This document shows, piece after piece, positions 7,388 to 26,611 of a stretch of 64,000 bases of DNA. The DNA is from a bacterium (GTDB taxonomy: Bacteria; Desulfobacterota; Binatia; HRBIN30; CADEER01). Position 1 is the first letter of the stretch. Every line of letters starts with the position of its first letter. Location: NCBI GenBank assembly GCA_019637795.1, contig JAHBUY010000001.1, forward strand, positions 455,001-519,000, read 5' to 3'. The notes under the pieces are model-generated. The model was not told the DNA's origin, did no database searches, and saw only the letters and a list, made by a program, of their open reading frames with translations. A program made the position numbers and the translations under genes.

Positions 7388-10300
7388 GTGAACCCCGCTC
7401 GCATTTCGCCGCTGGTTCTCGCGCGGCACGCGCTGACGGCGCTGGTGATGCTGGTCGGGGCGCGGGGGGCGGCGCGGGCGACCTGCAACGTCATCCCCGG
7501 CGTCAGCAACACCTTCCGCGGCGCCCGCGGGACCATCGACCGGCCGTTCGCCGGGCCGGGGGACGTGCTGACGCTGCGACTGAGCGCGTCGTGCGACGGT
7601 GACGCGAGCGCCTTCGGGACCGACCCCGGCGCCCTGGTGGCGACCTTCGTGTTCACGCCGCCGGCGGGGCCGCGCAACGTGGTGGCGCTGGCGGCCGACT
7701 GCGGGGCGCTGGCGGAGCGCCTGGCGCGCTGCCGCGGGCGCGGCGACGTCGCCGGCGCGGTCTGCGTGCCGGCGCGCACCAGCATGCCCGAGGGCGGCGT
7801 CGACCTGGCGCTGCGCGACGGGCGGCTCGACGTGCGCGTGCCGGACACCGACGCGCTGCTGCCGCCGGCCGGCGACGGCCGCGGCTTCACCGGAGCGGCG
7901 GCGGTCGCGATCACCGGCGCGGACGACGAGCTGCCGTGCGCGCTGGCGGCGCAGCCCTGCCGCGAGCAGGCCGGCGCGCTCGCCTGCATCGACGAGCTCT
8001 ACAGCGTCAACGACACCTGCGACCGGACGCCGCACGAGCTGTTCTCCCACTTCACCGCCCTGCCGGCGGCGAACGAGTACGGCGCCCTGTGCAGCGACGG
8101 GCGCGGCTGCAGCGGCGCCGCGGACGAGCTGCGCTTCACCATCGACGCCGATGGCAACGTGCTGGCGCCGATCCACTGGAGCGACGTGCTGCCGCCGGAG
8201 AAGGTCGACCTGGCGCGCCTGGTGCGCGCCACCGTGGCGGTCCGCGCCTTCCCCGATCGACCCGACCTCGTCCGGGTGCCGAACCGCGGCTTCCTGCACG
8301 CCTATTCGCCCGAGGGCAGCGTGTTGCCGCCGCTGTTCCTGCCGCAGCGCGACCCCACCGCGCCGGACGGCGTGACGCTCTTCGGCACCGCCGACGCCGA
8401 CCGCGGCGTGGTGCGCGTCGATCGCCGCAGCGTCACCTTCCACGCCTGCGCCGGCGGCGCCAACGACGGGCTCCCCTGCTACAACGGCGGCGACTGCCCC
8501 GCCGGCCGGTGCCGGCCCGCGACCTGCAACGGCGGCTCGCGCGCCGGCGAGCCCTGCGCCGGCGACGGCGAATGCCCGGAGGGCGAGTGCGGCGCCGCCC
8601 TCTTCGATTTCCGCACCCGCCTGACCGCCGGCGTCGGTCCGGTCACGGTGGCGCGCACCGGCGCCGGCGCCTGCGCGCGGTCCGGCACCGCGTGCGGCGG
8701 CGACGGCGACTGCGCCGCCGGCGATCACTGCGCCGGGTTCACGCTGCGGGCGCAGAATCCGGTCGGCCTCGACGGCCTGTTCGAATCGGACACCATGCTG
8801 GTGTCGGTCATCCCGGAGGCGTTCGCCAAGGAGGACCTCGACGGCGACGGCGACCAGACCGACGACGTGCTGCTGCTCACCGATCGGGTGTCGGGCGCGC
8901 GCCTGGCCATCGGCCGCGACGGCGCCCCCGGCCGCGCCGTCGCGCGCATCGACACGCCGCCGCTCAGCTTCCCCGCGGTGGTCGTCGCCGACGACCTCGT
9001 CGCCTTCCTCGAACCCGAGCCGCTCGCCGGCGAGGCGGATCTCAACGGCGATGGCGACGCGGTCGATACCATCCTGCGGGTCTTCCAGCGCACCCCCAAT
9101 GGCATCGTCGAGCTCACCGAGGGGCGGGTGCTGACCGCCGACGCGGCGCCGGTGATCGACGGCGACAGCCTGGCGATCATCGGCGGCCAGGTGATCTTCC
9201 GCACCGCGGAAGCGTCGGCGGCGCCGCGCCGCATCCGGCGGGTGAGCGTCGCCAGCGACGGCGCGGAAGCCGACGCCGCGTCGGCCGCCCCGGCGATCTC
9301 CGCCGACGGCCGCCAGGTCGCATTCGAGAGCGCCGCCACCAACCTGGCGCCCGGCCTCGACGCCCACGGCGTGTTCGTGCACGAGCTCGACAGCGGCGTG
9401 ACGACGGCGCTGCCGCTGCGCGACCCGCGCCACGACGGCGGCTGGCCAGGGGTGCGCGTGCCGCCCGGCGCCGCCGCCGAGTCGCCCGCCCTCTCCGGCG
9501 ACGGCCGCTACGTCGCCGTCGCCGCGCCGGACGAGCTGGGGCGGAAGCAGGTCTGGATCACCGACCGCGACGCCGACGGCAACGGCGTGTTCGACGAAAG
9601 CGACGGCGTCTCGACGGCGATCGTCAGCACCGACGTGCGCGGCCGCCAGCCCGGCGAGAAGGACAGCCTGTTTCCGTCCCTGACGCCCGATGCGCAACTG
9701 CTCACGTTCCTGACCGCGTCGCGCAACCTGCACGTCGATGGCGCCGGCAAGCTGCGCAACATGTGGCAGCACTGGGACCCCGACACCGATACCGTCCTCG
9801 CCAGCGATGCCGTGGAGAGCGGGGGCGTGCTGGCGAACACCGACTCGCTCCGCCAGCTCGCCCCGATCGCGCCCAATGGCGACGTCGTCTTCTCCTCGCC
9901 AGCCGACAATCTGGTCGACGACGACACCAACGACTTCTGCCTCAACGCCGGCGGCAATACCCGCTGCGCCGACATCTTCGTCTACTCGCCGCTGTACTGG
10001 CCGCTGCGCGTGCGCAACGGTGACCGGGAAGACTACCGGCGCACGGGTTTCGAGCGGGTCAGCCTCGACAGCGATGGGCGGCAGGCGAACCAGCAGTCGT
10101 CGGCCCCGGCGATCTCGTGGGACGGCCGGTTCGTGGGGTTCATCAGCGTGGCCTCGAACCTGGTGCCGGGCGACACCAACGGCACCGCCGATGTCTTCCT
10201 GCGCGACCGGCGCGCGCGGACGACGACGCGCGTGTCGGTCGCCTCCGACCGCGCGCAGGCCGACGGTCCGTCGTTCGACCGCGTCCTCGCGCTCTCGGCC

Positions 10301-14363: not shown

Positions 14364-14545
14364 GAAGCGGAGCCCCGAGCCCTTGCGGGATGCCGGTTTT
14401 CAACTGCGCCGGGGTGGGTGTTGTGGCGTGCCGTGCGATAGCTCCGTGTCCGCAAAACCAGGGCCCCACGGCCCGGCGTGGTGCCCTGGCGTGCCGCGCG
14501 GCGCCGCTACGGCCCGCCGCGTTGATTTGCAGGGTATTTGCGGAA
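14364..14545 (-). repeat. tRNA-Ser 3'-half plus attachment-arm unit (copy 1, degenerate)
   Basis: The unit contains the tRNA-Ser(UGA) 3' half from the anticodon loop to the acceptor end, but with about 16 bases of the T-arm deleted and a mutated loop (GTTGAAA). It is followed at higher coordinates by the conserved GC-rich arm TGCGCCGGGGTGGGTG..., ending 119 bases later in TTGATTTGCAGGGTATTTGC. It is the most worn of four such units. See the copies at 15863, 16678 and 17745. Confidence 0.7.
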
Positions 14546-14570
14546 TCGGACAGCGGAAACGGCTCGCCCC

Positions 14571-14906
14571 TCACCGGGTGCGCGCGCGGCCTGACGGCGC
14601 ACGCCTGGCCGGGGCCTGCTTCCTTCTGCCAGCCGACGCCTCCTCTTCACCGGCCGCTCCCACATCGTCGAGATCCTCCAAGCGGACTCCCTTGCCGGCG
14701 CGCAGGCTGCCCCGCGCCGCAGCGATGCGATCGAAAAAGGGCGGATCGTTCTCCAGCCGGTAATCGAACCACTCATCCTCGGAGTCAAAACCGATCAGGA
14801 CGCCGGCCGCCTTGCCATGGCGCGTGATCACGATCTCTTCCTTCGCCGCCTGGCGCAGGTAGCGAGACAGGTCGTCTTTCACTTCCGACAACGGGACTTC
14901 CTTCAT
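14571..14906 (-). CDS. Phd/YefM-family antitoxin
   Basis: A 111-residue protein beginning MKEVPLSEVKDDLSRYLRQA with 'EEIVITRHGKAAGVLIGF', the diagnostic Phd/YefM N-terminal fold that dimerises and binds operator DNA. The long charged C-terminal extension (from about residue 80) is the toxin-binding, flexible part. It starts 15 bases after the stop of the RelE-type toxin gene, so the order is toxin first. The pair should be co-transcribed leftward and autoregulated. The C-terminus runs to the edge of the tRNA-Ser/arm copy 1, and a relic of a sister antitoxin lies just beyond. Confidence 0.87.
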   Translation of the reverse strand: MKEVPLSEVKDDLSRYLRQAAKEEIVITRHGKAAGVLIGFDSEDEWFDYRLENDPPFFDRIAAARGSLRAGKGVRLEDLDDVGAAGEEEASAGRRKQAPARRAPSGRARTR

Positions 14907-14921
14907 CGCGCATCCTTTCCT

Positions 14922-15554
14922 TCATTCTCCGGACGCCTGAGGACCCGGTTCGCCGTGGCGCTCGAGCCAGGCGGCCGCGTGCGACTTCGCCACGACCGCC
15001 AGCACTTCGACGCGTTGCTCGACCACGTCGCAGAAGATTCGGACATCCTCCACGCGGAGACGGTACTGCGGGCGACGCATGCCCCGCAGCCTCTTGATCC
15101 GGCTTCGGCTGGTCTTCGTTGGTTCATGGCGCAGCCATCGCTCCAGAGCGTCCCGAACCGCTGCTCGATCGGCGGCTCTCAGCGCCTCGAGATCCTCCAC
15201 TGCCTCGGGGGCCAGGACGATCAAATGGCGCATTCTGGCCAGACTCTCGCCAGATTTCCGGAATGCGGCAACCGACCTCTGGCAACCTGCCGGGACCAGC
15301 ATGCGAGCTTCGGATACGAACGCGGTGATACCAGCCACCAGGCTTCTGAACTGCTCGGCAGTGATCTTGCGCGCCGCGAGCAGCGCCTGAGGAACCGTGC
15401 GATACGCCGCCATCGGTTCGGGCGCGACGCACACCTCGGCCGATCGCGGCACCTCTTCCAGGGCCCGCTGCGGTACTCCGCCAAACGCGAAGGCGGAGAC
15501 GACGACGCCGGTATCAACGACGACGCGTGGCCTTCGTCCCACGCGTCGCGACAC
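14922..15554 (-). CDS. chimeric ORF: truncated PIN domain fused to RelE/ParE toxin
   Basis: A 210-residue continuous frame made of two toxin families. Residues 1 to about 100 are the start of a PIN RNase (VVVDTGVVVSAF with its first acidic residue), cut before the later acidic residues. From residue 108, MRHLIVLAPEAVEDLEALRA begins a complete RelE/ParE-type toxin with 'KSRIKRLRG'-like, RRPQYRLRVEDVRIF and VEVLAVV strands. The RelE could be made alone from the ATG at 15233 (103 residues, normal length). It is followed by its Phd-type antitoxin. RelE toxins cleave mRNA on the ribosome. The fusion most likely arose by deletion between two adjacent TA modules; whether the fused protein is made is unknown. 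Confidence 0.82.
   Translation of the reverse strand: MSRRVGRRPRVVVDTGVVVSAFAFGGVPQRALEEVPRSAEVCVAPEPMAAYRTVPQALLAARKITAEQFRSLVAGITAFVSEARMLVPAGCQRSVAAFRKSGESLARMRHLIVLAPEAVEDLEALRAADRAAVRDALERWLRHEPTKTSRSRIKRLRGMRRPQYRLRVEDVRIFCDVVEQRVEVLAVVAKSHAAAWLERHGEPGPQASGE
15234..15554 (-). pseudogene. N-terminal remnant of a PIN-domain toxin
   Basis: The first 100 or so codons of the chimeric frame encode strand 1 and helices of a PIN RNase (VVVDTGVVVSAFAFGGVPQR; helix with PEPMAAYRTVPQAL), ending after EARMLVPAG. The usual following segment with conserved Asp residues (DPDD.. and SGDxD) is absent, so nuclease activity is unlikely. It lies directly downstream of its probable antitoxin and overlaps its 3' end by 41 bases. 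Confidence 0.65.
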
Positions 15555-15816
15555 GCTTCCTCCGCACCGTGCGGACTGCCTCCTCGACGTCGTCGACCGT
15601 CAGAGTGGTGCCCCGAAACGCTTCGCGCGCCACGCGAAAGGCCGGCTCCAACCGCTGCTCGGGAGAGAGCGCGGCGAGGATGAGCTCCTCAGGGGTGAGT
15701 TTCTCGGCACCGGCCTTCACGGTTTCGACCTCTGAACTTCCAGTGGCCAGATCGCTCGCCCGCGTCACAATGAACAAGCCAGAGGGTGGTCCCGCCCAGC
15801 CAGTCCACACGAGCAT
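15514..15816 (-). CDS. probable antitoxin partner of the truncated PIN toxin
   Basis: About 100 residues with no strong family signature. The core LTPEELILAALSPEQRLEPA followed by 'FRVAREAFRGTTLTVDDVEEAVRTVRRKR' is helical and charged, ending in a basic tail (ATRGTKATRRR). Short charged proteins of this kind are commonly found immediately upstream of PIN toxins in TA operons, which is the basis of the call. The ATG at 15816 is used; a GTG at 15768 (VTRASDLATG) is equally possible. It abuts tRNA-Ser/arm copy 2 on its upstream side. Confidence 0.6.
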   Translation of the reverse strand: MLVWTGWAGPPSGLFIVTRASDLATGSSEVETVKAGAEKLTPEELILAALSPEQRLEPAFRVAREAFRGTTLTVDDVEEAVRTVRRKRVATRGTKATRRR

Positions 15817-15862
15817 GACCGCACCGCCAGCGGAGGGGGTATGCGTTCCTCTAAAGAAACGA

Positions 15863-16050
15863 CGGAGGGGGAGGGATTCGAACCCCCGAGCCCTTGCGGG
15901 CTGCCGGTTCTCAAGTGCGCCGGGGTGGGTGTTGCAGCGCCCCTCGGCGTGCCTTGGTGTCCGGAACATCGGGCCTGCGCGCCCGGTTTCATATCGGCCC
16001 GTCCCATGTTGTACCGATTGGTGCCGCGGCGTTGATTTGCAGAGTATTGG
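15863..16050 (-). repeat. tRNA-Ser 3'-half plus attachment-arm unit (copy 2)
   Basis: Bases 15863-15915 reproduce the 3' half of tRNA-Ser(UGA), from the anticodon loop (here CTTGAGA, one change) through variable arm, T-arm and acceptor strand. At the loop the homology stops and is replaced by the conserved arm TGCGCCGGGGTGGGTG, which runs about 118 bases to TTGATTTGCAGAGTATTGGC. It separates the RelE/PIN module from the BrnTA module. Confidence 0.82.
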
Positions 16051-16086
16051 CCGATCCCCTCGCAGACCGTGGACAGACCGGCTGAA

Positions 16087-16104
16087 TTTCGGTATTTACC
16101 GAAA
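16087..16104. promoter_or_regulatory. perfect 18-bp palindrome, candidate BrnTA operator
   Basis: TTTCGGTA-TT-TACCGAAA is a perfect inverted repeat with 8-bp arms directly before the GTG at 16105 proposed as the BrnT start. BrnA-type antitoxins autorepress their operons through such palindromes, so this is a likely operator. Its position leaves little room for a ribosome site if 16105 is the start. Confidence 0.6.
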
Positions 16105-16398
16105 GTGCGGTTCGAGTGGGATGGTCGGAAGGCCTGGGCGAACCGCGCGAAGCACGGCGTCAGCTTCGAGGAAGCGATTACAGCATTCGATGATCCATTT
16201 GCCCTGGTGGCGGTCGATACGCGCCACTCGACGCCGGATGAGGAGCGCACATGGCTGATCGGGGCCGCGGATGTTGCCGCCCTCGTCGTCGTCTACACAA
16301 CCCGGGACGCGGGCGAGGTGTTTCGTATCATCAGTGCGCGGCGTGCCAGCCGGCGGGAGCGGAAGCGCTATGAAGAAGCTCGAGGAATTTCCGTTTGA
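16105..16398 (+). CDS. brnT: BrnT-family toxin
   Basis: About 97 residues starting VRFEWDGRKAWANRAKHGVS, the characteristic BrnT opening (FEWDxxKAxxNxxKHGVSFEEA). It continues with DDPFALVAVDTRHS and the C-terminal 'IISARRASRRERKRYEE' strand and helix. BrnT is a RelE-like ribonuclease that cleaves RNA under stress. The GTG at 16105 fits the family N-terminus; an upstream GTG at 16069 would add 12 residues and place the palindrome inside the gene. The antitoxin gene overlaps its 3' end by 29 bases, the usual BrnT-then-BrnA order. It is transcribed rightward, opposite to most island genes. Confidence 0.88.
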   Translation: MRFEWDGRKAWANRAKHGVSFEEAITAFDDPFALVAVDTRHSTPDEERTWLIGAADVAALVVVYTTRDAGEVFRIISARRASRRERKRYEEARGISV

Positions 16399-16633
16399 GA
16401 AGGCCCGGCGACGAACCGCCCGCGAAGTCGAGGCCGCACGCAAGGCCATCGAAACCAAGCTGGGCACGACGCGGCCGCGGCGCGGGCGTCCCCCCAAGGG
16501 CGACGACAAGTACACCCCGGTATCAATCCGACTCGATCCACGCGTCCTCGCCTGGGCCAAGCGCGAAGCCAAGAAGCGCGGGCTCGGGTATCAGACGATC
16601 ATCAACCAGGCCCTACTGAAGGCGTCCGCCTGA
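16370..16633 (+). CDS. brnA: BrnA-family antitoxin
   Basis: An 87-residue antitoxin beginning MKKLEEFPFEKARRRTAREV, with a Lys/Arg-rich middle (RRGRPPKGDDKY) and a ribbon-helix-helix C-terminus (TPVSIRLDPRVLAWAKREAK, then GYQTIINQAL). BrnA binds BrnT and represses the operon as a dimer. The start overlaps the toxin gene. A relic of a close relative lies at 13995-14071, and a more distant BrnA/BrnT-like pair lies at 19022-19571, so this family recurs in the island. Confidence 0.88.
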   Translation: MKKLEEFPFEKARRRTAREVEAARKAIETKLGTTRPRRGRPPKGDDKYTPVSIRLDPRVLAWAKREAKKRGLGYQTIINQALLKASA

Positions 16634-16677
16634 TTCGGCGTCGCGCGTCGAGCGCTCTGCCGACACCAGCCGAGAGG

Positions 16678-16870
16678 AAGCGGAGGGGAAGGCATTCGAA
16701 CCCCAGAGCCCTTGCGGGCTGCCGGTTTTCAAGTGCGCCGGGATGGGTGCCCTGGCGTGCCTCGCCCTCCCTCGGTGTCCGGCAATTCGTGGCCAGTGAC
16801 CCGACGCCGCGCCTCAGTGTCCCTCGACATCACGCCGTGTGCCGCGGCGCTGATTTGCAGAGTATTTGCA
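16678..16870 (-). repeat. tRNA-Ser 3'-half plus attachment-arm unit (copy 3)
   Basis: Bases 16678-16733 match the tRNA-Ser(UGA) 3' half with a few substitutions in the T-arm, and the anticodon loop CTTGAAA is intact. Beyond the loop the arm reads TGCGCCGGGATGGGTG and ends 118 bases later in CTGATTTGCAGAGTATTTGC. It separates BrnTA from the HTH/RelE module. Confidence 0.82.
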
Positions 16871-16874
16871 ACGA

Positions 16875-16985
16875 TCGGGCTACGCCGCGCGCGTGTCGAT
16901 CCCCTCGAACCCCACCGACAATCGCCCGCCGAGGGCACGGGCGATACGGTCCAGCAGGTCGAGCGAAGGGGTGAAGGCCGATCCA
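16875..16985 (-). pseudogene. relic of an XRE antitoxin C-terminus
   Basis: The reverse strand encodes a segment matching the end of the XRE antitoxin at 17954-18286 (LDLLDRIARALGGRLSVGFE, then GIDTRAA versus GIGTRAA). The DNA match covers roughly 100 bases with scattered changes. The helix-turn-helix itself is missing. It sits immediately after arm copy 3, exactly where the intact antitoxin sits after arm copy 4, so it is the residue of another cassette of the same kind. Confidence 0.72.
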
Positions 16986-16996
16986 CTCGTTGCCCC

Positions 16997-17323
16997 TCAC
17001 GCCGCCTCGATCTCGACCCTGTATCTCAACCCGGCCGCGTCCAGTTCCCCCTGGATGGCGAGACGCACCAGCACGGATTCGGGGTAACCGAGCGTGCGCG
17101 CCCACTTCGCCGCACGCTCGGGACTCACGGTCTTGCGCCCCTTCTCAACGTCGCAGAGATGCGACTTCGAGACGCCGAGCTTCTTGGCGCACTCGTCCTG
17201 CGAGAGGTCCTCGCTCTTCCGGATGGACTCGATGGCCCTGCCGAGGGTCAGGGAGCCGCCCGAAATCTTCTCCAGCCGCTTCATTGTCTCCGACTTCATT
17301 TCCTTGCCCTTGCGCATGGACAC
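16997..17323 (-). CDS. XRE-family antitoxin of a RelE-type module
   Basis: A 108-residue protein with an N-terminal basic extension (MSMRKGKEMKSETMKRLEKI) and a Cro/C1 helix-turn-helix (LTLGRAIESIRKSEDLSQDE, then CAKKLGVSKSHLCDVEKGRK). It ends 'LVRLAIQGELDAAGLRYRVEI'. It lies 4 bases downstream of the toxin stop and is co-oriented, giving the toxin-first HigBA-like order. It should repress the operon and bind the toxin. Alternative in-frame starts at the second or third Met cannot be excluded. Confidence 0.85.
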   Translation of the reverse strand: MSMRKGKEMKSETMKRLEKISGGSLTLGRAIESIRKSEDLSQDECAKKLGVSKSHLCDVEKGRKTVSPERAAKWARTLGYPESVLVRLAIQGELDAAGLRYRVEIEAA

Positions 17324-17327
17324 CCCG

Positions 17328-17606
17328 TCAGTAGTCGTGCTTGCTCACCTCTTCGATCGAAACGAACCTGGCCGTGCCTTCCTTGACCTCGTAGATGGCT
17401 CGGTACGCACGGCTCAGCCGGATCGACCGCTGGCCCGCGCGGTCTCCCTTGAGCGCCTCATCGTGGTAGCCCCGCACCTTGCGTACCTGTTCGACACCAT
17501 CGCGTTCGACTGCCGCGACCCAGATCATCAGATTGTCCACAATGTGCCGTGGACACTTGCGGAGCTGTTTCTCCGCAACCCTGGTGATCTCGACCCGGCG
17601 GATCAT
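17328..17606 (-). CDS. RelE/HigB-like toxin
   Basis: A 92-residue RelE-fold protein: MIRRVEITRVAEKQLRKCPR, then VRGYHDEALKGDRAGQRSIR, LSRAYRAIYEV and the C-terminal VSIEEVSKHDY. The GYHDEAL/RSIRLSRAYR strands and the terminal HDY match the HigB/RelE ribosome-dependent mRNA interferase superfamily. Together with the XRE antitoxin it forms a complete module between arm copies 3 and 4. No ribosome site is striking; the ATG at 17606 fits the expected length. Confidence 0.85.
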   Translation of the reverse strand: MIRRVEITRVAEKQLRKCPRHIVDNLMIWVAAVERDGVEQVRKVRGYHDEALKGDRAGQRSIRLSRAYRAIYEVKEGTARFVSIEEVSKHDY

Positions 17607-17744
17607 CGGGCGCGACGGTACACCCGTAGGGTGAACCCATCAAGGGGAGCCAACGGGTGCAGGCTGCTCGACTGCTCGGCTCCGGGCGGTCAATCGCGCC
17701 GCTGGCTCGACGCCGCATGACGAGCCGCCCAGCGGTTCAGGAAC

Positions 17745-17938
17745 GGAGGGGGAGGGATTCGAACCCCCGAGCCCTTCCCTTGCGGGCTGCCGGTTTTCAA
17801 GTGCGCCGGGGTGGGTGCCCTGACGTTGCTCGCCGCCCCTGGTGTCTGGAAATCAGTGGTCGGGGACCCGGCGCGGTGCCTCGGCATCCCTCGTCATGAC
17901 CTCGTGTGCCGCGAAGTTGATTTGCAGAACATTGAACA
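17745..17938 (-). repeat. tRNA-Ser 3'-half plus attachment-arm unit (copy 4)
   Basis: Bases 17745-17801 carry the tRNA-Ser(UGA) 3' half with an intact T-arm and anticodon loop and a 4-base insertion in the variable arm (CCCTTCCCTTG). Beyond the loop comes the arm TGCGCCGGGGTGGGTG, ending 117 bases later in TTGATTTGCAGAACATT. It separates two XRE/RelE-type modules. Confidence 0.82.
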
Positions 17939-17953
17939 TTGGCAACTCGCGGG

Positions 17954-18286
17954 CTAGGCAGCGCGTGTACCGATCCCCTCGAACCCCACCGACAGGCGCC
18001 CGCCAAGGGCACGAGCGATACGATCCAGCAGGTCGAGCGACGGGGTGAACGCTGAGCCGCCCTCGATCCGGGCGACGACCGCCTGCGTCGTCTTCGCCCG
18101 CGTGGCGAGTTGCGCCTGCGTCAGGCCAGCCTGTGAGCGCGCTCGCTTCACCATCACCGCGATCGTCGCCCGCACGACACTCGCGTCGATCCGGGCGCGC
18201 AGACGGGGATTGCCTACCACCCTGCGGCGGACGTCCGCGAGCGCGTCACCGCCGATGTGCGGGTTGCGAGCTTTCGGCTTCTTCAT
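17954..18286 (-). CDS. XRE-family (HigA-like) antitoxin
   Basis: A 110-residue protein with a conserved N-terminal extension and a helix-turn-helix (AGLTQAQLATRAKTTQAVVA, then RIEGGSAFTPSLDLLDRIAR), ending ALGGRLSVGFEGIGTRAA. This combination is typical of HigA-like antitoxins partnered with Gp49-like toxins. It overlaps the toxin stop by four bases (ATGA), so translation is coupled. A relic of a near-identical C-terminus lies at 16875-16985. Confidence 0.87.
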   Translation of the reverse strand: MKKPKARNPHIGGDALADVRRRVVGNPRLRARIDASVVRATIAVMVKRARSQAGLTQAQLATRAKTTQAVVARIEGGSAFTPSLDLLDRIARALGGRLSVGFEGIGTRAA

Positions 18287-18606
18287 CGGAACCCTCCCAG
18301 AACTTCCCTCGCCCGTCGCGTGGCGAGGTCGAGATCGCTGCGCGCCGTTCGCTGTCCCTGCTTCTTGAAGGCATGCAGCAGCACCATCTCCGGTCCGCGA
18401 ACGATGACGTACGCCACTCGGTGCCGCCCTACCCGAACCTCCCAGAGTTTGCCGTCGAGTTGGTGCAGCGACACCGGCGCATCGAGACCGAACAGTCCGA
18501 GCAGCGTCAGAGTCTCATCCCAGTCATCTCGCTCGCGGGTCGGCAGCGTGGCGATATACGCGGACCGGCTCGTCTCCCCAGCGGAGCGGTAGTACCGGAT
18601 GCGCAC
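18283..18606 (-). CDS. Gp49/HigB-like toxin
   Basis: A 107-residue protein: MRIRYYRSAGETSRSAYIAT, 'LTLLGLFGLDAPVSLHQLDGKLWEVRVGRHRVAYVI', and the diagnostic VLLHAFKKQGQRTARSDLDL. That last segment, LLHAFxKKxxxTPxxEi-like, marks the phage-derived Gp49/HigB group of RelE-fold ribonucleases. The start codon lies 90 bases from the tRNA-Ser 3' end. It forms a complete toxin-first module with the following XRE antitoxin. Confidence 0.87.
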   Translation of the reverse strand: MRIRYYRSAGETSRSAYIATLPTRERDDWDETLTLLGLFGLDAPVSLHQLDGKLWEVRVGRHRVAYVIVRGPEMVLLHAFKKQGQRTARSDLDLATRRAREVLGGFR

Positions 18607-18695
18607 GACACGGTTTACTCCCTATCGGGCATACTCCTGCAACGTCGTCTCCGTTGACCATGTCGCCGCCGGCAGGATCGGCGCGATTGAGGAAG

Positions 18696-18781
18696 CGGAG
18701 GGGGAGGGATTCGAACCCCCGAGCCCTTGCGGGCTGCCGGTTTTCAAGACCGGTGCCATAGACCAACTCGGCCACCCCTCC
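18696..18781 (-). tRNA. tRNA-Ser(UGA)
   Basis: A complete 86-base tRNA read on the reverse strand. The acceptor stem GGAGGGG/CCCCTCC carries a G discriminator and CCA is not encoded. The anticodon stem CCGGT/ACCGG encloses the loop CTTGAAA with anticodon TGA. A long class II variable arm (AGCCC-GCAA-GGGCT) and T-loop TTCGAAT are present, which identifies serine. It is the only complete copy in the window. Five partial copies lie within 5.5 kb: four 3' halves on its downstream side and one 5' half on its upstream side, all broken at the anticodon loop. This is the pattern left by tyrosine-recombinase integration at the anticodon stem-loop. Confidence 0.97.
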
Positions 18782-19021
18782 TCATGACGAAATCGACTGC
18801 TTACGACGTCTCCTGTTCGACGCAAGGTCCGAATTGTGGCGCTGATGGCGATCCAGTAGGCCTCATCGGCGGAGCGCCCGCCACGCCCGCTCGTCCCTGG
18901 GTCCGCCGTGCAGCCGGGGATGAAGGTTCCTCGCCAGGTCCGGCACCCTCCGCCACGGGGAATCCGGAGATCCCCGGCGGCCTCTCGAATGTGCGCGACA
19001 AGAACGGATCACCGCCGCCGG

Positions 19022-19297
19022 CTATCCGGCCAGCTTCTCTTTGAGCCACAAGTTGACAAGGCTCTCGGGGGTGAGGCCTCGCGTCGCGGCGCACCGGCGC
19101 ACTTCACGCAAGATACCGGGGTCCACCGCCACGAGGAAGCGACGGCGCTTGATGGCCACGTCGAAGACGGCGGCACGCGTCGGCTCGCCAACGTTACCGA
19201 GGTCGTGCGTATCCCAGTAGGCTCCGATTTCCTCGTAGGTCTGCGCCTTCGATATGGCGGACCTCTTCGGTTGTTCCCCTCCCTTACTTCTTTTCAT
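19022..19297 (-). CDS. BrnA-like antitoxin
   Basis: About 91 residues from the ATG at 19297 (MKRSKGGEQPKRSAISKAQT). The segment YEEIGAYWDTHDLGNV followed by 'FDVAIKRRRFLVAVDPGILREVRRCAATRGLTPESLVNLWLKEKL' has the strand and helix pair of a CopG/BrnA-type antitoxin. It overlaps the toxin gene by 14 bases. It is the only TA module on the upstream side of the intact tRNA-Ser and is bounded by the isolated tRNA 5' half. Confidence 0.8.
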   Translation of the reverse strand: MKRSKGGEQPKRSAISKAQTYEEIGAYWDTHDLGNVGEPTRAAVFDVAIKRRRFLVAVDPGILREVRRCAATRGLTPESLVNLWLKEKLAG

Positions 19298-19571
19298 AGA
19301 GTCTCCGCTCCCGACGGCTTGGCTCGCGCGCACTGAGAATCAGCGCGTCGTGCATGCGCGGTTTGTAAATGAAGAACACGAGCAGGCGCCGGCCGGCGTG
19401 CGTTCGACCAAGCGCCACGTACACGTTCTCGCCAGGCTTGTGCCCCCGTTCCACGAAGCGAAATCGCGGCTGCGCTGCGAGCACGTCCTCTACCTCCGCA
19501 GTAGTCACGTGATGCTTGCTCTCCAGCTTGTCGACGATCGCTTCGAGCCATGTGATGCCCTCAATCCGCAC
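19284..19571 (-). CDS. BrnT-like toxin
   Basis: A 95-residue protein reading ITWLEAIVDKLESKHHVTTA, 'VEDVLAAQPRFRFVERGHKPGENVYVALGRTHAGRRLLVFFI', and LILSAREPSRRERRLYEKK. The C-terminal 'SAREPSRRERRLYEKK' and the H-x-V-x-x-x-E-V-E opening match the BrnT/DUF497-like toxin family, though the N-terminus differs from the BrnT at 16105. With the overlapping antitoxin it forms a complete leftward module. Confidence 0.82.
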   Translation of the reverse strand: MRIEGITWLEAIVDKLESKHHVTTAEVEDVLAAQPRFRFVERGHKPGENVYVALGRTHAGRRLLVFFIYKPRMHDALILSAREPSRRERRLYEKK

Positions 19572-19797
19572 GCGCTGCGCCTCCGCCAGCTCCCGCCGAC
19601 CGAGTTACCATAGCAGCATCTCGCCCCGCGACATTCGGGGACGCACAGTGTCCCAGAAGCGTCCACGCAGGGTTCGAAACGAGGAGAACTGATTCGAACG
19701 GAGATGCGCTGGGCAGCGCGAGAGAATCCATATGGCCCAGGCATTTCCGCGAAATCCTCCGCCGGCTCTGCGGTTGCGGGAGCCAGCCCAATCAGCT

Positions 19798-19835
19798 TTC
19801 AAGACCGGTGCCATAGACCAACTCGGCCACCCCTC
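19798..19835 (-). repeat. tRNA-Ser(UGA) 5' half
   Basis: On the reverse strand this repeats the 5' half of the tRNA at 18696-18781: acceptor 5' strand, D-arm, anticodon 5' stem and the loop CTTGAAA. Homology then stops. It cannot form a tRNA. It is the reciprocal of the four 3' halves and shares with them only the 7-base anticodon loop, as expected for the overlap region of a site-specific crossover. The rest of 19572-19909 shows no gene. Confidence 0.85.
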
Positions 19836-19909
19836 CGGTGGGCTGTTCGTGGCTACCACTCCGCTCGCGGGCAGGCCACTCCGGCGGCACGGGCGAGCGC
19901 CCCGCGGCG

Positions 19910-24595: not shown

Positions 24596-26611
24596 TCAGT
24601 CGACCGGCAGCGTGAAGGCGAACGTCGCACCGTCGCCCGCCAGCGGCTCGACCCACAGCCGGCCGCCGTGCGCCTCGACGATCGAGCGGCTGATCGACAG
24701 GCCCATCCCGAGCCCGTTCGACTTGGTGGTGAAGAAGGGCTCGAACAGGCGCTCGCGCGCCGCCGCGGGCACCCCGCCGCCCTGATCGTGCACCGTCACC
24801 TCGACGGCGCGGCCGGCGGCGCGCGTCGCGACGCGGAGGGCGCCGCGCGCGCCGGCGTTGGTCATGACCTCGAGCCCGTTGCGCAGCAGGTTGACGATGA
24901 CCTGCTCGACCTGGACCGGGTCGACGCGCGCCGCCGGCAGGTCCGGCGCCAGGTCCAGAGCGAGCGAGATCGCGGCACGCCGCGCCTCGGCCTCCACCAA
25001 CCCCACCGCCGACCCGACCAACTCGTTGACGTCGACGGACCGCCGCGGCGACGCGTCCTTGCGCATGAAGACGCGCAGCCGCTGCAGGACGACGCCGGCG
25101 CGCAGCGCCTGGGTGGCGATGTGGGCCGCGGCCTCGACCAGGGCGGCGCGGTCGCTGACGCCGTTGCGCAGCCGCTCGGCGAGGCCGCTGGCGTAGTTGG
25201 CGATCGCGCCCAACGGCTGGTTGATCTCGTGCGCCAGCTCGGCGGCGAGACAGTTGACGGTCTCCAGGCGCAGGATGTGCGCCAGCTCGGCCTGGTGGCG
25301 GGCCGCTTGTTCCTGGATCCGGCGGCGCTCGGTGACGTCGAGGTAGGTGCCGGTCACGCGCAGGGCCCGGCCGTCCGGCGCCCGTTCGACGACCTTGCCG
25401 CGCGTCCGCAACCAGCGATACTCGCCCGACTTCGCGCGCAACCGGTGCTCGACCTCGTAGTGCGGGCTCGTCCCTTCGATGACGTGCGCCGTCCAGGCCT
25501 GCTGCACCATGGCCTGGTCGTCGGGGTGGGTGATCGTCACCCAGAAGTCCGATGGCCGTTCGATCTCGCGCGCGACGTAGCCGAGGATCTCGGCCCAGTG
25601 CGTGTCGCCGACCACCCGCCCGGTGCGGCCGTCCCAATCCCACATCCCGAGCTCGGTGGCCCGCAACGCCAGGTCCAGGCGCTCCTCGGCCTGCCGACGC
25701 TGGGCGACCTCGTTGCGCAGGAGCACGTTCGCCGCGGCCAGGCCGGCGGTGCGCTGCTGCACGCGCTGCTCGAGGGAGTCGCGGGCCTGCTCCAGTGCCC
25801 GCTCGGCGCGCTTCTGATCGTCGATGTCGACGGCGAACACGATGACACCGACGATCTCGCCGCGCTCGTTGCGGTCGGGAATCTTGTCGGTGCGGATCCA
25901 GCGCTTGTCGCCGCGCGCGGTCTGGATCTGCTCGACGATGCCGAGCTTGGGGACCCCGGACTCGATCACCTCGAGGTCGTCGCGGTGGTAGCTCTCGGCC
26001 TCGTCGGGAAAGAGCTCCCACGAGGAACGGCCTTCCATGTCCGCCGGCGTCAGGCCGGCCGCCGCGGCCGCCGCGGCGTTGGCGCGCAGGATGTTGTTGT
26101 GGCGGTCCTTGTACCAGACCATCGCCGGCATGCCGTCGAGGATGACGCGCAGCTCCTCGCGCTGCCGCGCCTCCTCGGCGCGGGCGCGATGGCGGTCGGT
26201 GACGTCGTTGGTGCAGCCGATGGTGCCGATCACCTGCCCGCCGGCGTCGCGGCGCAGCGAGATGCGCAGGTCGACGAAGATCTCGCTGCCGTCCTTGCGC
26301 CGGCTGCGCCACTCGCGCTCCGCGACGCCGTGGTCGCGGAGCTCCGCGACCACCCACTGCATGGCCGCGTCGCGGTCCTCCGGAAAGTAGAGGCGCCCGA
26401 CGGGCTGCCCGATCATCTCCGACGCGCGGTAGCCGTAGATGCGTTCGGCGGACGCGTTCCAGGCGTTCACGACGCCTTCCCGATCGGTCGCCACCACCCC
26501 GTCATGGATCTGATCGAGGAGATCGGCCGAGACGGCGGGCGGCGGCAGCGGCGCGTCGTCCGGGTCCGAGGGCCGTGAGACGCCGGCCACCCTGCGCGCA
26601 CCTGATGCCAT
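24596..26611 (-). CDS. multi-PAS sensor histidine kinase
   Basis: A 671-residue soluble kinase without transmembrane segments. Three PAS/PAC units occupy about residues 27-150 (DGVVATDREGVVNAWNASAE), 150-275 and 295-420. A HisKA domain with the H-box ELAHEINQPLGAI follows near residue 450, then HATPase_c with N-box VEQVIVNLLRNGLEVM, G1 DQGGGV, F-box FEPFFTTK and G2 SNGLGMGLSI. The H-box type resembles cytosolic FixL-like kinases. No haem-binding signature is evident and no response regulator gene is adjacent, so it is an orphan. The C-terminal 'LWVEPLAGDGATFAFTLP' completes the domain. Confidence 0.92.
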   Translation of the reverse strand: MASGARRVAGVSRPSDPDDAPLPPPAVSADLLDQIHDGVVATDREGVVNAWNASAERIYGYRASEMIGQPVGRLYFPEDRDAAMQWVVAELRDHGVAEREWRSRRKDGSEIFVDLRISLRRDAGGQVIGTIGCTNDVTDRHRARAEEARQREELRVILDGMPAMVWYKDRHNNILRANAAAAAAAGLTPADMEGRSSWELFPDEAESYHRDDLEVIESGVPKLGIVEQIQTARGDKRWIRTDKIPDRNERGEIVGVIVFAVDIDDQKRAERALEQARDSLEQRVQQRTAGLAAANVLLRNEVAQRRQAEERLDLALRATELGMWDWDGRTGRVVGDTHWAEILGYVAREIERPSDFWVTITHPDDQAMVQQAWTAHVIEGTSPHYEVEHRLRAKSGEYRWLRTRGKVVERAPDGRALRVTGTYLDVTERRRIQEQAARHQAELAHILRLETVNCLAAELAHEINQPLGAIANYASGLAERLRNGVSDRAALVEAAAHIATQALRAGVVLQRLRVFMRKDASPRRSVDVNELVGSAVGLVEAEARRAAISLALDLAPDLPAARVDPVQVEQVIVNLLRNGLEVMTNAGARGALRVATRAAGRAVEVTVHDQGGGVPAAARERLFEPFFTTKSNGLGMGLSISRSIVEAHGGRLWVEPLAGDGATFAFTLPVD

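What the first reader, a model, noticed from the sequence alone, without database searches (positions are those of the whole stretch)
18696..19835. All tRNA-Ser fragments share only the 7-nt anticodon loop CTTGAAA
The four 3' halves begin at CTTGAAA and the single 5' half (19798-19835) ends at CTTGAAA, so this heptamer would be the crossover overlap with the anticodon stem CCGGT/ACCGG as the inverted core sites. Integrases using the anticodon stem-loop are known; here both kinds of displaced half are kept beside an intact gene, implying insertions on both sides.
Basis: partly seen in the sequence, partly recalled or inferred. Interest (0 to 1): 0.6.

Follow-up and report, generated by a model that had tools for sequence, protein, structure and literature searches.

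The report
Toxin-antitoxin cassettes stacked at tRNA-Ser
A bacterial serine-tRNA gene has been used again and again as a landing site by one family of integrases that cuts exactly in the seven-base anticodon loop, leaving a row of small DNA pieces next to the gene, each reduced to little more than a toxin-antitoxin pair.

Summary
One intact tRNA-Ser(UGA) gene (18781-18695, minus strand) is followed by four displaced 3' halves and preceded by one 40-nt 5' half. The 3' pieces start, and the 5' piece ends, at CTTGAAA. "Share only" is inaccurate: the 3' halves share the whole tRNA 3' half and about 140 nt of attP-like arm, and two carry a changed heptamer.

Mechanism supported: serial integration by one clade of arm-binding tyrosine integrases that cross over in the anticodon loop CTT[C/G]AAA of tRNA-Ser(UGA) or tRNA-SeC. 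Relatives show both handednesses, with integrase and displaced 3' or 5' half. In G000 itself a 45-kb tRNA-SeC island has the same kind of core and tandem arm sites at -136. The window segments are five integrase-less pieces (0.8-1.5 kb), each holding toxin-antitoxin genes. A relative (G020) has 17 such half-sites, carrying TA, TOTE-type and metabolic genes, with an intact cognate integrase beside the tRNA. G000's only cognate integrase lacks its N-terminus.

Novelty: known principle (tDNA islands, accretion, CIMEs), new variant (TA-only mini-cassettes in long arrays; a two-handed integrase clade). Whether segments arrived small or shrank in place is open; missing P' arms favour shrinkage.

The parts
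18695..18781 (-). intact tRNA-Ser(UGA), attB/attL; anticodon loop CTTGAAA at 18742-18748
   Evidence: ARAGORN
19797..19836 (-). displaced 5' half of tRNA-Ser, ends exactly at CTTGAAA (19797-19803)
   Evidence: 100% over 40 nt; same kind of boundary in G028/G055
17744..17801 (-). displaced 3' half no. 1 (5-nt insertion AAGGG)
16681..16733 (-). displaced 3' half no. 2 (3 mismatches)
15863..15915 (-). displaced 3' half no. 3 (CTTGAGA)
14373..14403 (-). displaced 3' half no. 4, truncated (GTTGAAA)
17802..17945 (-). P-arm region of half no. 1 (tandem arm site partly decayed)
   Evidence: alignment
16734..16875 (-). P-arm region of half no. 2; tandem arm sites GCAAAT-N5-GCAAAT at 16853-16869, 136 nt from the core
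15916..16055 (-). P-arm region of half no. 3
   Evidence: alignment
14404..14545 (-). P-arm region of half no. 4; tandem arm sites at 14525-14541, 138 nt from the core
18782..19796 (-). segment A (5'-half type): BrnT-like toxin 19284-19571 and CopG-like antitoxin 19022-19297
   Evidence: Pfam (both below the curated cut-off); GC 64%
17802..18694 (-). segment B: Gp49-like (HigB-type) toxin 18283-18606 and HTH antitoxin 17954-18286
   Evidence: Pfam
16734..17743 (-). segment C: RelE-like toxin 17328-17606 and HTH_3 antitoxin 16997-17317; beyond them a remnant homologous to the antitoxin end of segment B (16864-16984)
   Evidence: Pfam, PHROG, repeat D5
15916..16680 (+). segment D: BrnT 16105-16398 and BrnA 16370-16633
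   Evidence: Pfam
14404..15862 (-). segment E: ParE/RelE-like protein 14922-15542 (longer N-terminal part unassigned), Phd/YefM antitoxin 14571-14906, small ORF 15514-15816
   Evidence: Pfam, PHROG

Best explanation
The locus is a tandem accretion array at tRNA-Ser(UGA). Tyrosine integrases of one clade (arm-binding domain, SAM-like core-binding domain, catalytic domain) recombine an element's attP with the tRNA gene inside the 7-nt anticodon loop. Most elements carry a replacement 3' half and push the old one downstream; a mirror-image type carries a replacement 5' half and pushes the old one upstream. Each new 3'-type element therefore lands next to the tRNA, and older ones lie further out with more worn half-sites. 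After insertion, deletions starting just beyond the half needed to keep the tRNA intact removed the integrase, the P' arm and most cargo, while the toxin-antitoxin pair next to the P arm stayed because losing it is costly. The result is a row of 'TA + P arm + core + tRNA half' units. Shown: fragments, common crossover point, arm geometry, TA content, integrase clade and its targets, both handednesses in relatives. Inferred: order of events, shrinkage in place, retention by TA addiction, present inactivity in G000.
For: Boundaries identical across at least five genomes. P arm with tandem 6-8mers 11-12 nt apart at -136/-138 in two of four window half-sites, about -137 in most canonical G020 half-sites, and -136/-138 in four integrase-bearing tRNA-SeC islands; none expected in the window by chance. 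In G000 the intact SeC gene (C1:644093-644187) and its displaced half (C1:598669-598738) bound a 45-kb island whose integrase is 60% identical to the one beside tRNA-Ser in G020. The integrases found next to tRNA-SeC or tRNA-Ser(UGA) on the 3' side and the 5'-side ones of G028 and G055 form one clade of nine at 100/99 support (one of the nine, G054, lies at a contig edge with no tRNA visible). 5'-type elements with integrase and displaced 5' half in G028 and G055. Five of five window segments hold TA genes at 64-67% GC against 72% around. Half-sites decay roughly with distance from the tRNA. P' arm missing at window sites and at most G020 half-sites, and an integrase C-terminal remnant beside a 3' half in G026.
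Against: No strain pair with and without a segment was found, and circles cannot be tested here. Three G020 segments share the same integrase-less layout (3' half, then TOTE-like gene), which suits elements that were already small when they inserted or were copied. The G000 integrase homologue is truncated, so who inserted the latest segments is unknown. Segment A has no recognisable arm repeats. One integrase beside tRNA-Ser(UGA) in G055 (L095) falls outside the clade, so other integrases use this tRNA too.
Confidence: 0.78

Rival explanations
1. The ~1-kb segments moved as integrase-less cassettes: circles with core and arm were inserted in trans by an integrase of a resident or visiting island, so the locus works like an integron with a tRNA gene as landing site.
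For: Compact layout (coding gap to either end 47-263 nt in segments B, C, D, E); same compact form in three lineages; in G020 an intact cognate integrase beside the tRNA with the same arm repeat as the segments; related units repeated in one genome at 83-91% identity, e.g. HicAB with its P arm and core.
Against: P' arm absent from nearly all segments, so they are not complete attP substrates; repeats within one genome can also come from unequal crossing-over; no segment was seen in an occupied/empty strain pair.
Confidence: 0.3
2. The units can still be mobilised in cis: an autonomous island next to the tRNA supplies integrase and P' arm, and recombines with any downstream P arm plus core, excising itself together with some units (CIME-style accretion). 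This is compatible with the best explanation and adds present-day mobility.
For: Units keep P arm and core but not P' arm, which is what such attR-like sites need; G020 has the integrase-bearing island in the tRNA-proximal position.
Against: No excision evidence; the G020 assembly breaks between that island and the array contigs.
Confidence: 0.35
3. The fragments arose by repeat-mediated duplication of the tRNA region, without a site-specific recombinase.
For: Half-sites are direct repeats and could recombine; some segments are duplicated.
Against: All boundaries fall on the same nucleotide on both sides in unrelated lineages, with arm sites at fixed distance and integrases next to the same tRNA.
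Confidence: 0.04
4. The 5' half at 19797-19836 is a leftover of another rearrangement, not a 5'-type integration.
For: No arm repeats in segment A and no relative of its flank in 29 genomes.
Against: It ends exactly at CTTGAAA like true 5'-type insertions in G028 and G055 with integrases, and segment A is a low-GC TA unit like the others.
Confidence: 0.12

Closest known systems
Integrase islands in tRNA genes with anticodon-loop crossover (Islander class A; PMC4383910)
   Same: tDNA plus displaced fragments in the right order and orientation, tyrosine integrases, crossover in the anticodon loop (2,083 of 3,919 islands); 5' fragments known (159 of 3,919); tandems known
   Different: Window segments have no integrase and are 0.8-1.5 kb; Islander's filters reject both; only 4 tandems of 3 or more were reported, against 17 full-length displaced half-sites in G020
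ssrA genomic islands of Dehalococcoides (PMC3146451)
   Same: Long tandem series of half-sites downstream of one essential RNA gene; 15 islands without an integration module; motif conserved just outside the repeat
   Different: Serine recombinases, T-loop of tmRNA, reductive dehalogenase cargo, not TA-only units
CIMEs / accretion (ICESt1-related elements; cited in PMC3146451)
   Same: Elements reduced to cargo between att sites that could move with an autonomous neighbour
   Different: Here serial, about 1 kb and TA-only; mobilisation untested
Sedentary chromosomal integrons
   Same: Array of small units, many TA (own knowledge), next to a fixed landing site
   Different: No IntI (TIGR02249 51 bits against cut-off 265); sites are tRNA halves with arm repeats, not attC

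Membership tests
tRNA-gene integrative islands (anticodon-loop type) | intact tDNA plus displaced fragment in correct order and orientation | tested here: met
tRNA-gene integrative islands (anticodon-loop type) | crossover in the anticodon loop | tested here: met
   7-nt overlap CTTGAAA; homologous CTTCAAA in SeC islands
tRNA-gene integrative islands (anticodon-loop type) | tyrosine integrase inside the element | tested here: not met
   no integrase in the window segments; PF00589 search of G000 puts none near the array. Met in relatives and, truncated, in the SeC island
tRNA-gene integrative islands (anticodon-loop type) | attP with arm sites on both sides | tested here: not met
   P arm present, P' arm not found in window segments
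CIME (cis-mobilizable element) | att sites at the ends, no integrase or transfer genes | tested here: met
   P arm plus core kept
CIME (cis-mobilizable element) | mobilised with a related autonomous element | not testable with these tools
   needs excision assays or reads
Integron | IntI integrase | tested here: not met
   G020 integrase 51 bits to TIGR02249, cut-off 265
Integron | attC recombination sites between cassettes | tested here: not met
   junctions are tRNA 3' halves starting CTTGAAA; no dedicated attC model was run

The most novel reading that the evidence does not exclude
A tRNA-anchored stockpiling platform analogous to an integron: an anticodon-loop integrase stays next to tRNA-Ser while small units carrying only a P arm and core (TA, TOTE-type, metabolic genes) accumulate behind it and can still be excised or exchanged, with separate arm-site dialects (TTGCAAAC, TTCCCCA, TTGTCCG) defining compatible sets.
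Probability: 0.22. Interest if true: 0.8.

Novelty: new variant of a known kind. Interest (0 to 1): 0.52.

Why it matters
Island finders such as Islander discard tRNA-bounded pieces that are under 2 kb or lack an integrase, so arrays like this would be missed. The locus shows how serial integration at an essential tRNA can leave a row of toxin-antitoxin units, and it gives a clean case of one integrase clade using the same 7-nt overlap in mirror-image orientations, which makes handedness of tRNA integration directly testable.

Tried and rejected
Exact scan of viral contigs for CGCACTTGAAAACCGGCAG: none. A stricter half-site pattern in 395 genomes of the phylum hit only G000 and G020. Genome-contig hits in Ramlibacter, Syntrophobacterales and Oscillibacter MAGs were bare 15-20 nt matches without tRNA halves, so rejected as chance. 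DNA synteny of the flanks with relatives: none beyond the tRNA in the part of the output read; by protein only the PAS histidine kinase at 24596-26611 recurs near tRNA-Ser in some relatives, so no clean empty site was obtained. Arm repeats in segment A: none. Literature searches returned no description of TA-only tRNA cassette arrays; the library lacks most subscription papers, so this is weak evidence of novelty. Split or trans-spliced tRNA considered and rejected: an intact gene is present and the halves carry attP-like arms.

Full report
What is there. The window holds one intact tRNA-Ser(UGA) gene on the minus strand, 18781-18695. Reading in the direction of the gene, four displaced 3' halves follow it (17801-17744, 16733-16681, 15915-15863, 14403-14373), and one displaced 5' half precedes it (19836-19797, 40 nt, 100%). 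The overlap between the two kinds is exactly CTTGAAA, the 7-nt anticodon loop. Two of the 3' halves have a changed heptamer. A further worn site lies outside the window at G000 C1:449560-449589.

What lies between. Every segment between neighbouring half-sites in the window holds toxin-antitoxin genes: A BrnT-like/CopG-like (both under Pfam's curated cut-off), B Gp49-like/HTH, C RelE-like/HTH_3, D BrnT/BrnA, E ParE-like/Phd. The segments have 64-67% GC in 72% surroundings. None holds an integrase, and none of the 16 integrase matches of the genome lies near the array.

Relatives. A specific 19-mer covering the arm-core junction occurs in 4 of 148 genomes of the class. Named records for three of these are MAGs deposited as Deltaproteobacteria. 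G020 has 17 full-length displaced 3' halves on three contigs, besides its intact tRNA. Its segments carry ParE with a putative antitoxin, HicAB, BrnTA, DUF5615/DUF433 and DUF4160/HTH pairs, a TOTE-type primase-helicase, an N-formylglutamate amidohydrolase, a GST and an ERG4/ERG24-family protein. G026 has PemK/MazF-type toxin segments.

The integrase. In G020 the island directly beside tRNA-Ser encodes a 389-aa tyrosine integrase with Phage_integrase, SAM-like and (weakly) arm-binding domains; its nearest solved relatives include the Int protein of 6en0/6emy. Its relatives with over 50% identity sit next to tRNA-SeC (G000, G003, G022, G078) or tRNA-Ser(UGA) (G097); one (G054) is at a contig edge. 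The SeC loop is CTTCAAA in a near-identical stem. In G000 the SeC gene and its displaced 3' half bound a 45-kb island, and displaced SeC halves begin at CTTCAAA in G000, G003, G022 and G078. These integrases, together with the 5'-side integrases of G028 and G055, form one clade of nine at 100/99 support; a further integrase on the 3' side of tRNA-Ser in G055 (L095) falls outside it.

The attachment site. Four SeC islands have a tandem arm repeat 136-138 nt before the core. The window segments have GCAAAT-N5-GCAAAT at 136 and 138 nt before the core in two of four half-sites, with decayed versions in the others; no such pair is expected by chance in 64 kb and none lies elsewhere in the window. 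In G020, nine of twelve canonical half-sites have the TTGCAAAC pair at about -137 (one of them at -147); in one more the pair is separated from the core by a transposase-bearing insertion that looks like IS3 (not tested by profile), and in another it is at -65. Other half-sites show other repeats at about the same place: TTCCCCA in G026/G145 and in a second type of site in G020 and G026, TTGTCCG-like in a third type (partly read by eye). The integrase-proximal P' arm lies at +117/118 in Ser islands and +137 to +160 in SeC islands, but a single P' site near the expected position is found in only two of twelve G020 sites and in none of the window's.

Both sides. G028 and G055 have integrases on the 5' side of tRNA-Ser and displaced 5' halves ending at CTTGAAA, with mirrored arm repeats; the G028 element also has an AlpA-like gene and other genes that by eye look like a phage satellite. 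This makes the window's 5' half a plausible 5'-type insertion, although segment A shows no arm repeat.

How it works. Shown: a common crossover point, a conserved arm geometry and an integrase clade that sits beside these two tRNAs. Inferred: each 3'-type insertion lands at the tRNA and pushes older half-sites outwards, which fits the rough decay with distance; segments later lost integrase and P' arm, keeping TA and P arm. G000's only clade integrase lacks the part matching residues 1-135 of the family, so the array is probably quiet there unless a helper arrives. Whether units can still move in cis with an autonomous neighbour, as the intact integrase in G020 would allow, or even arrived as small cassettes, is open.

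Known or new. Islander records thousands of anticodon-loop islands, 159 with 5' fragments, but drops elements under 2 kb or without integrase, and lists only four tandems of three or more (PMC4383910). Dehalococcoides ssrA islands are the nearest precedent for long tandem series, including ones without an integration module (PMC3146451). It is not an integron. I rate it a new variant of a known kind.

Noticed in passing
G000 C1:598669-644187 (outside the window): 45-kb island between tRNA-SeC and its displaced 3' half; its integrase lacks the N-terminal third.
   Followed up: partly
window 16864-16984 and 17938-18058: Segment C carries, next to its P arm, a remnant homologous (85%) to the antitoxin end of segment B, suggesting TA replacement within a unit.
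   Followed up: no
L039 and L037 (G020 C250, C87): Three related TOTE-type primase-helicase genes next to 3' halves: one intact, one split, one with internal deletions, so non-TA cargo decays while TA pairs look intact.
   Followed up: partly
L037 4510-5916 (G020 C87): An IS3-like insertion (identified by eye) separates the P-arm repeat from its core.
   Followed up: no
G055 C29 (L134; 5' halves at contig positions 7928 and 22548): tRNA-Ser flanked by integrases on both sides, of two different clades, with two displaced 5' halves upstream.
   Followed up: partly
G000 C1:449560-449589: Sixth, worn half-site 24 kb from the tRNA; the part of the 19.8 kb between it and site 14403 that lies in the window has chromosomal GC and its few profiled genes show no island hallmarks.
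   Followed up: no
window 24596-26611: PAS histidine kinase whose relatives lie near tRNA-Ser in G002, G005 and G026; probably part of the ancestral neighbourhood.
   Followed up: partly
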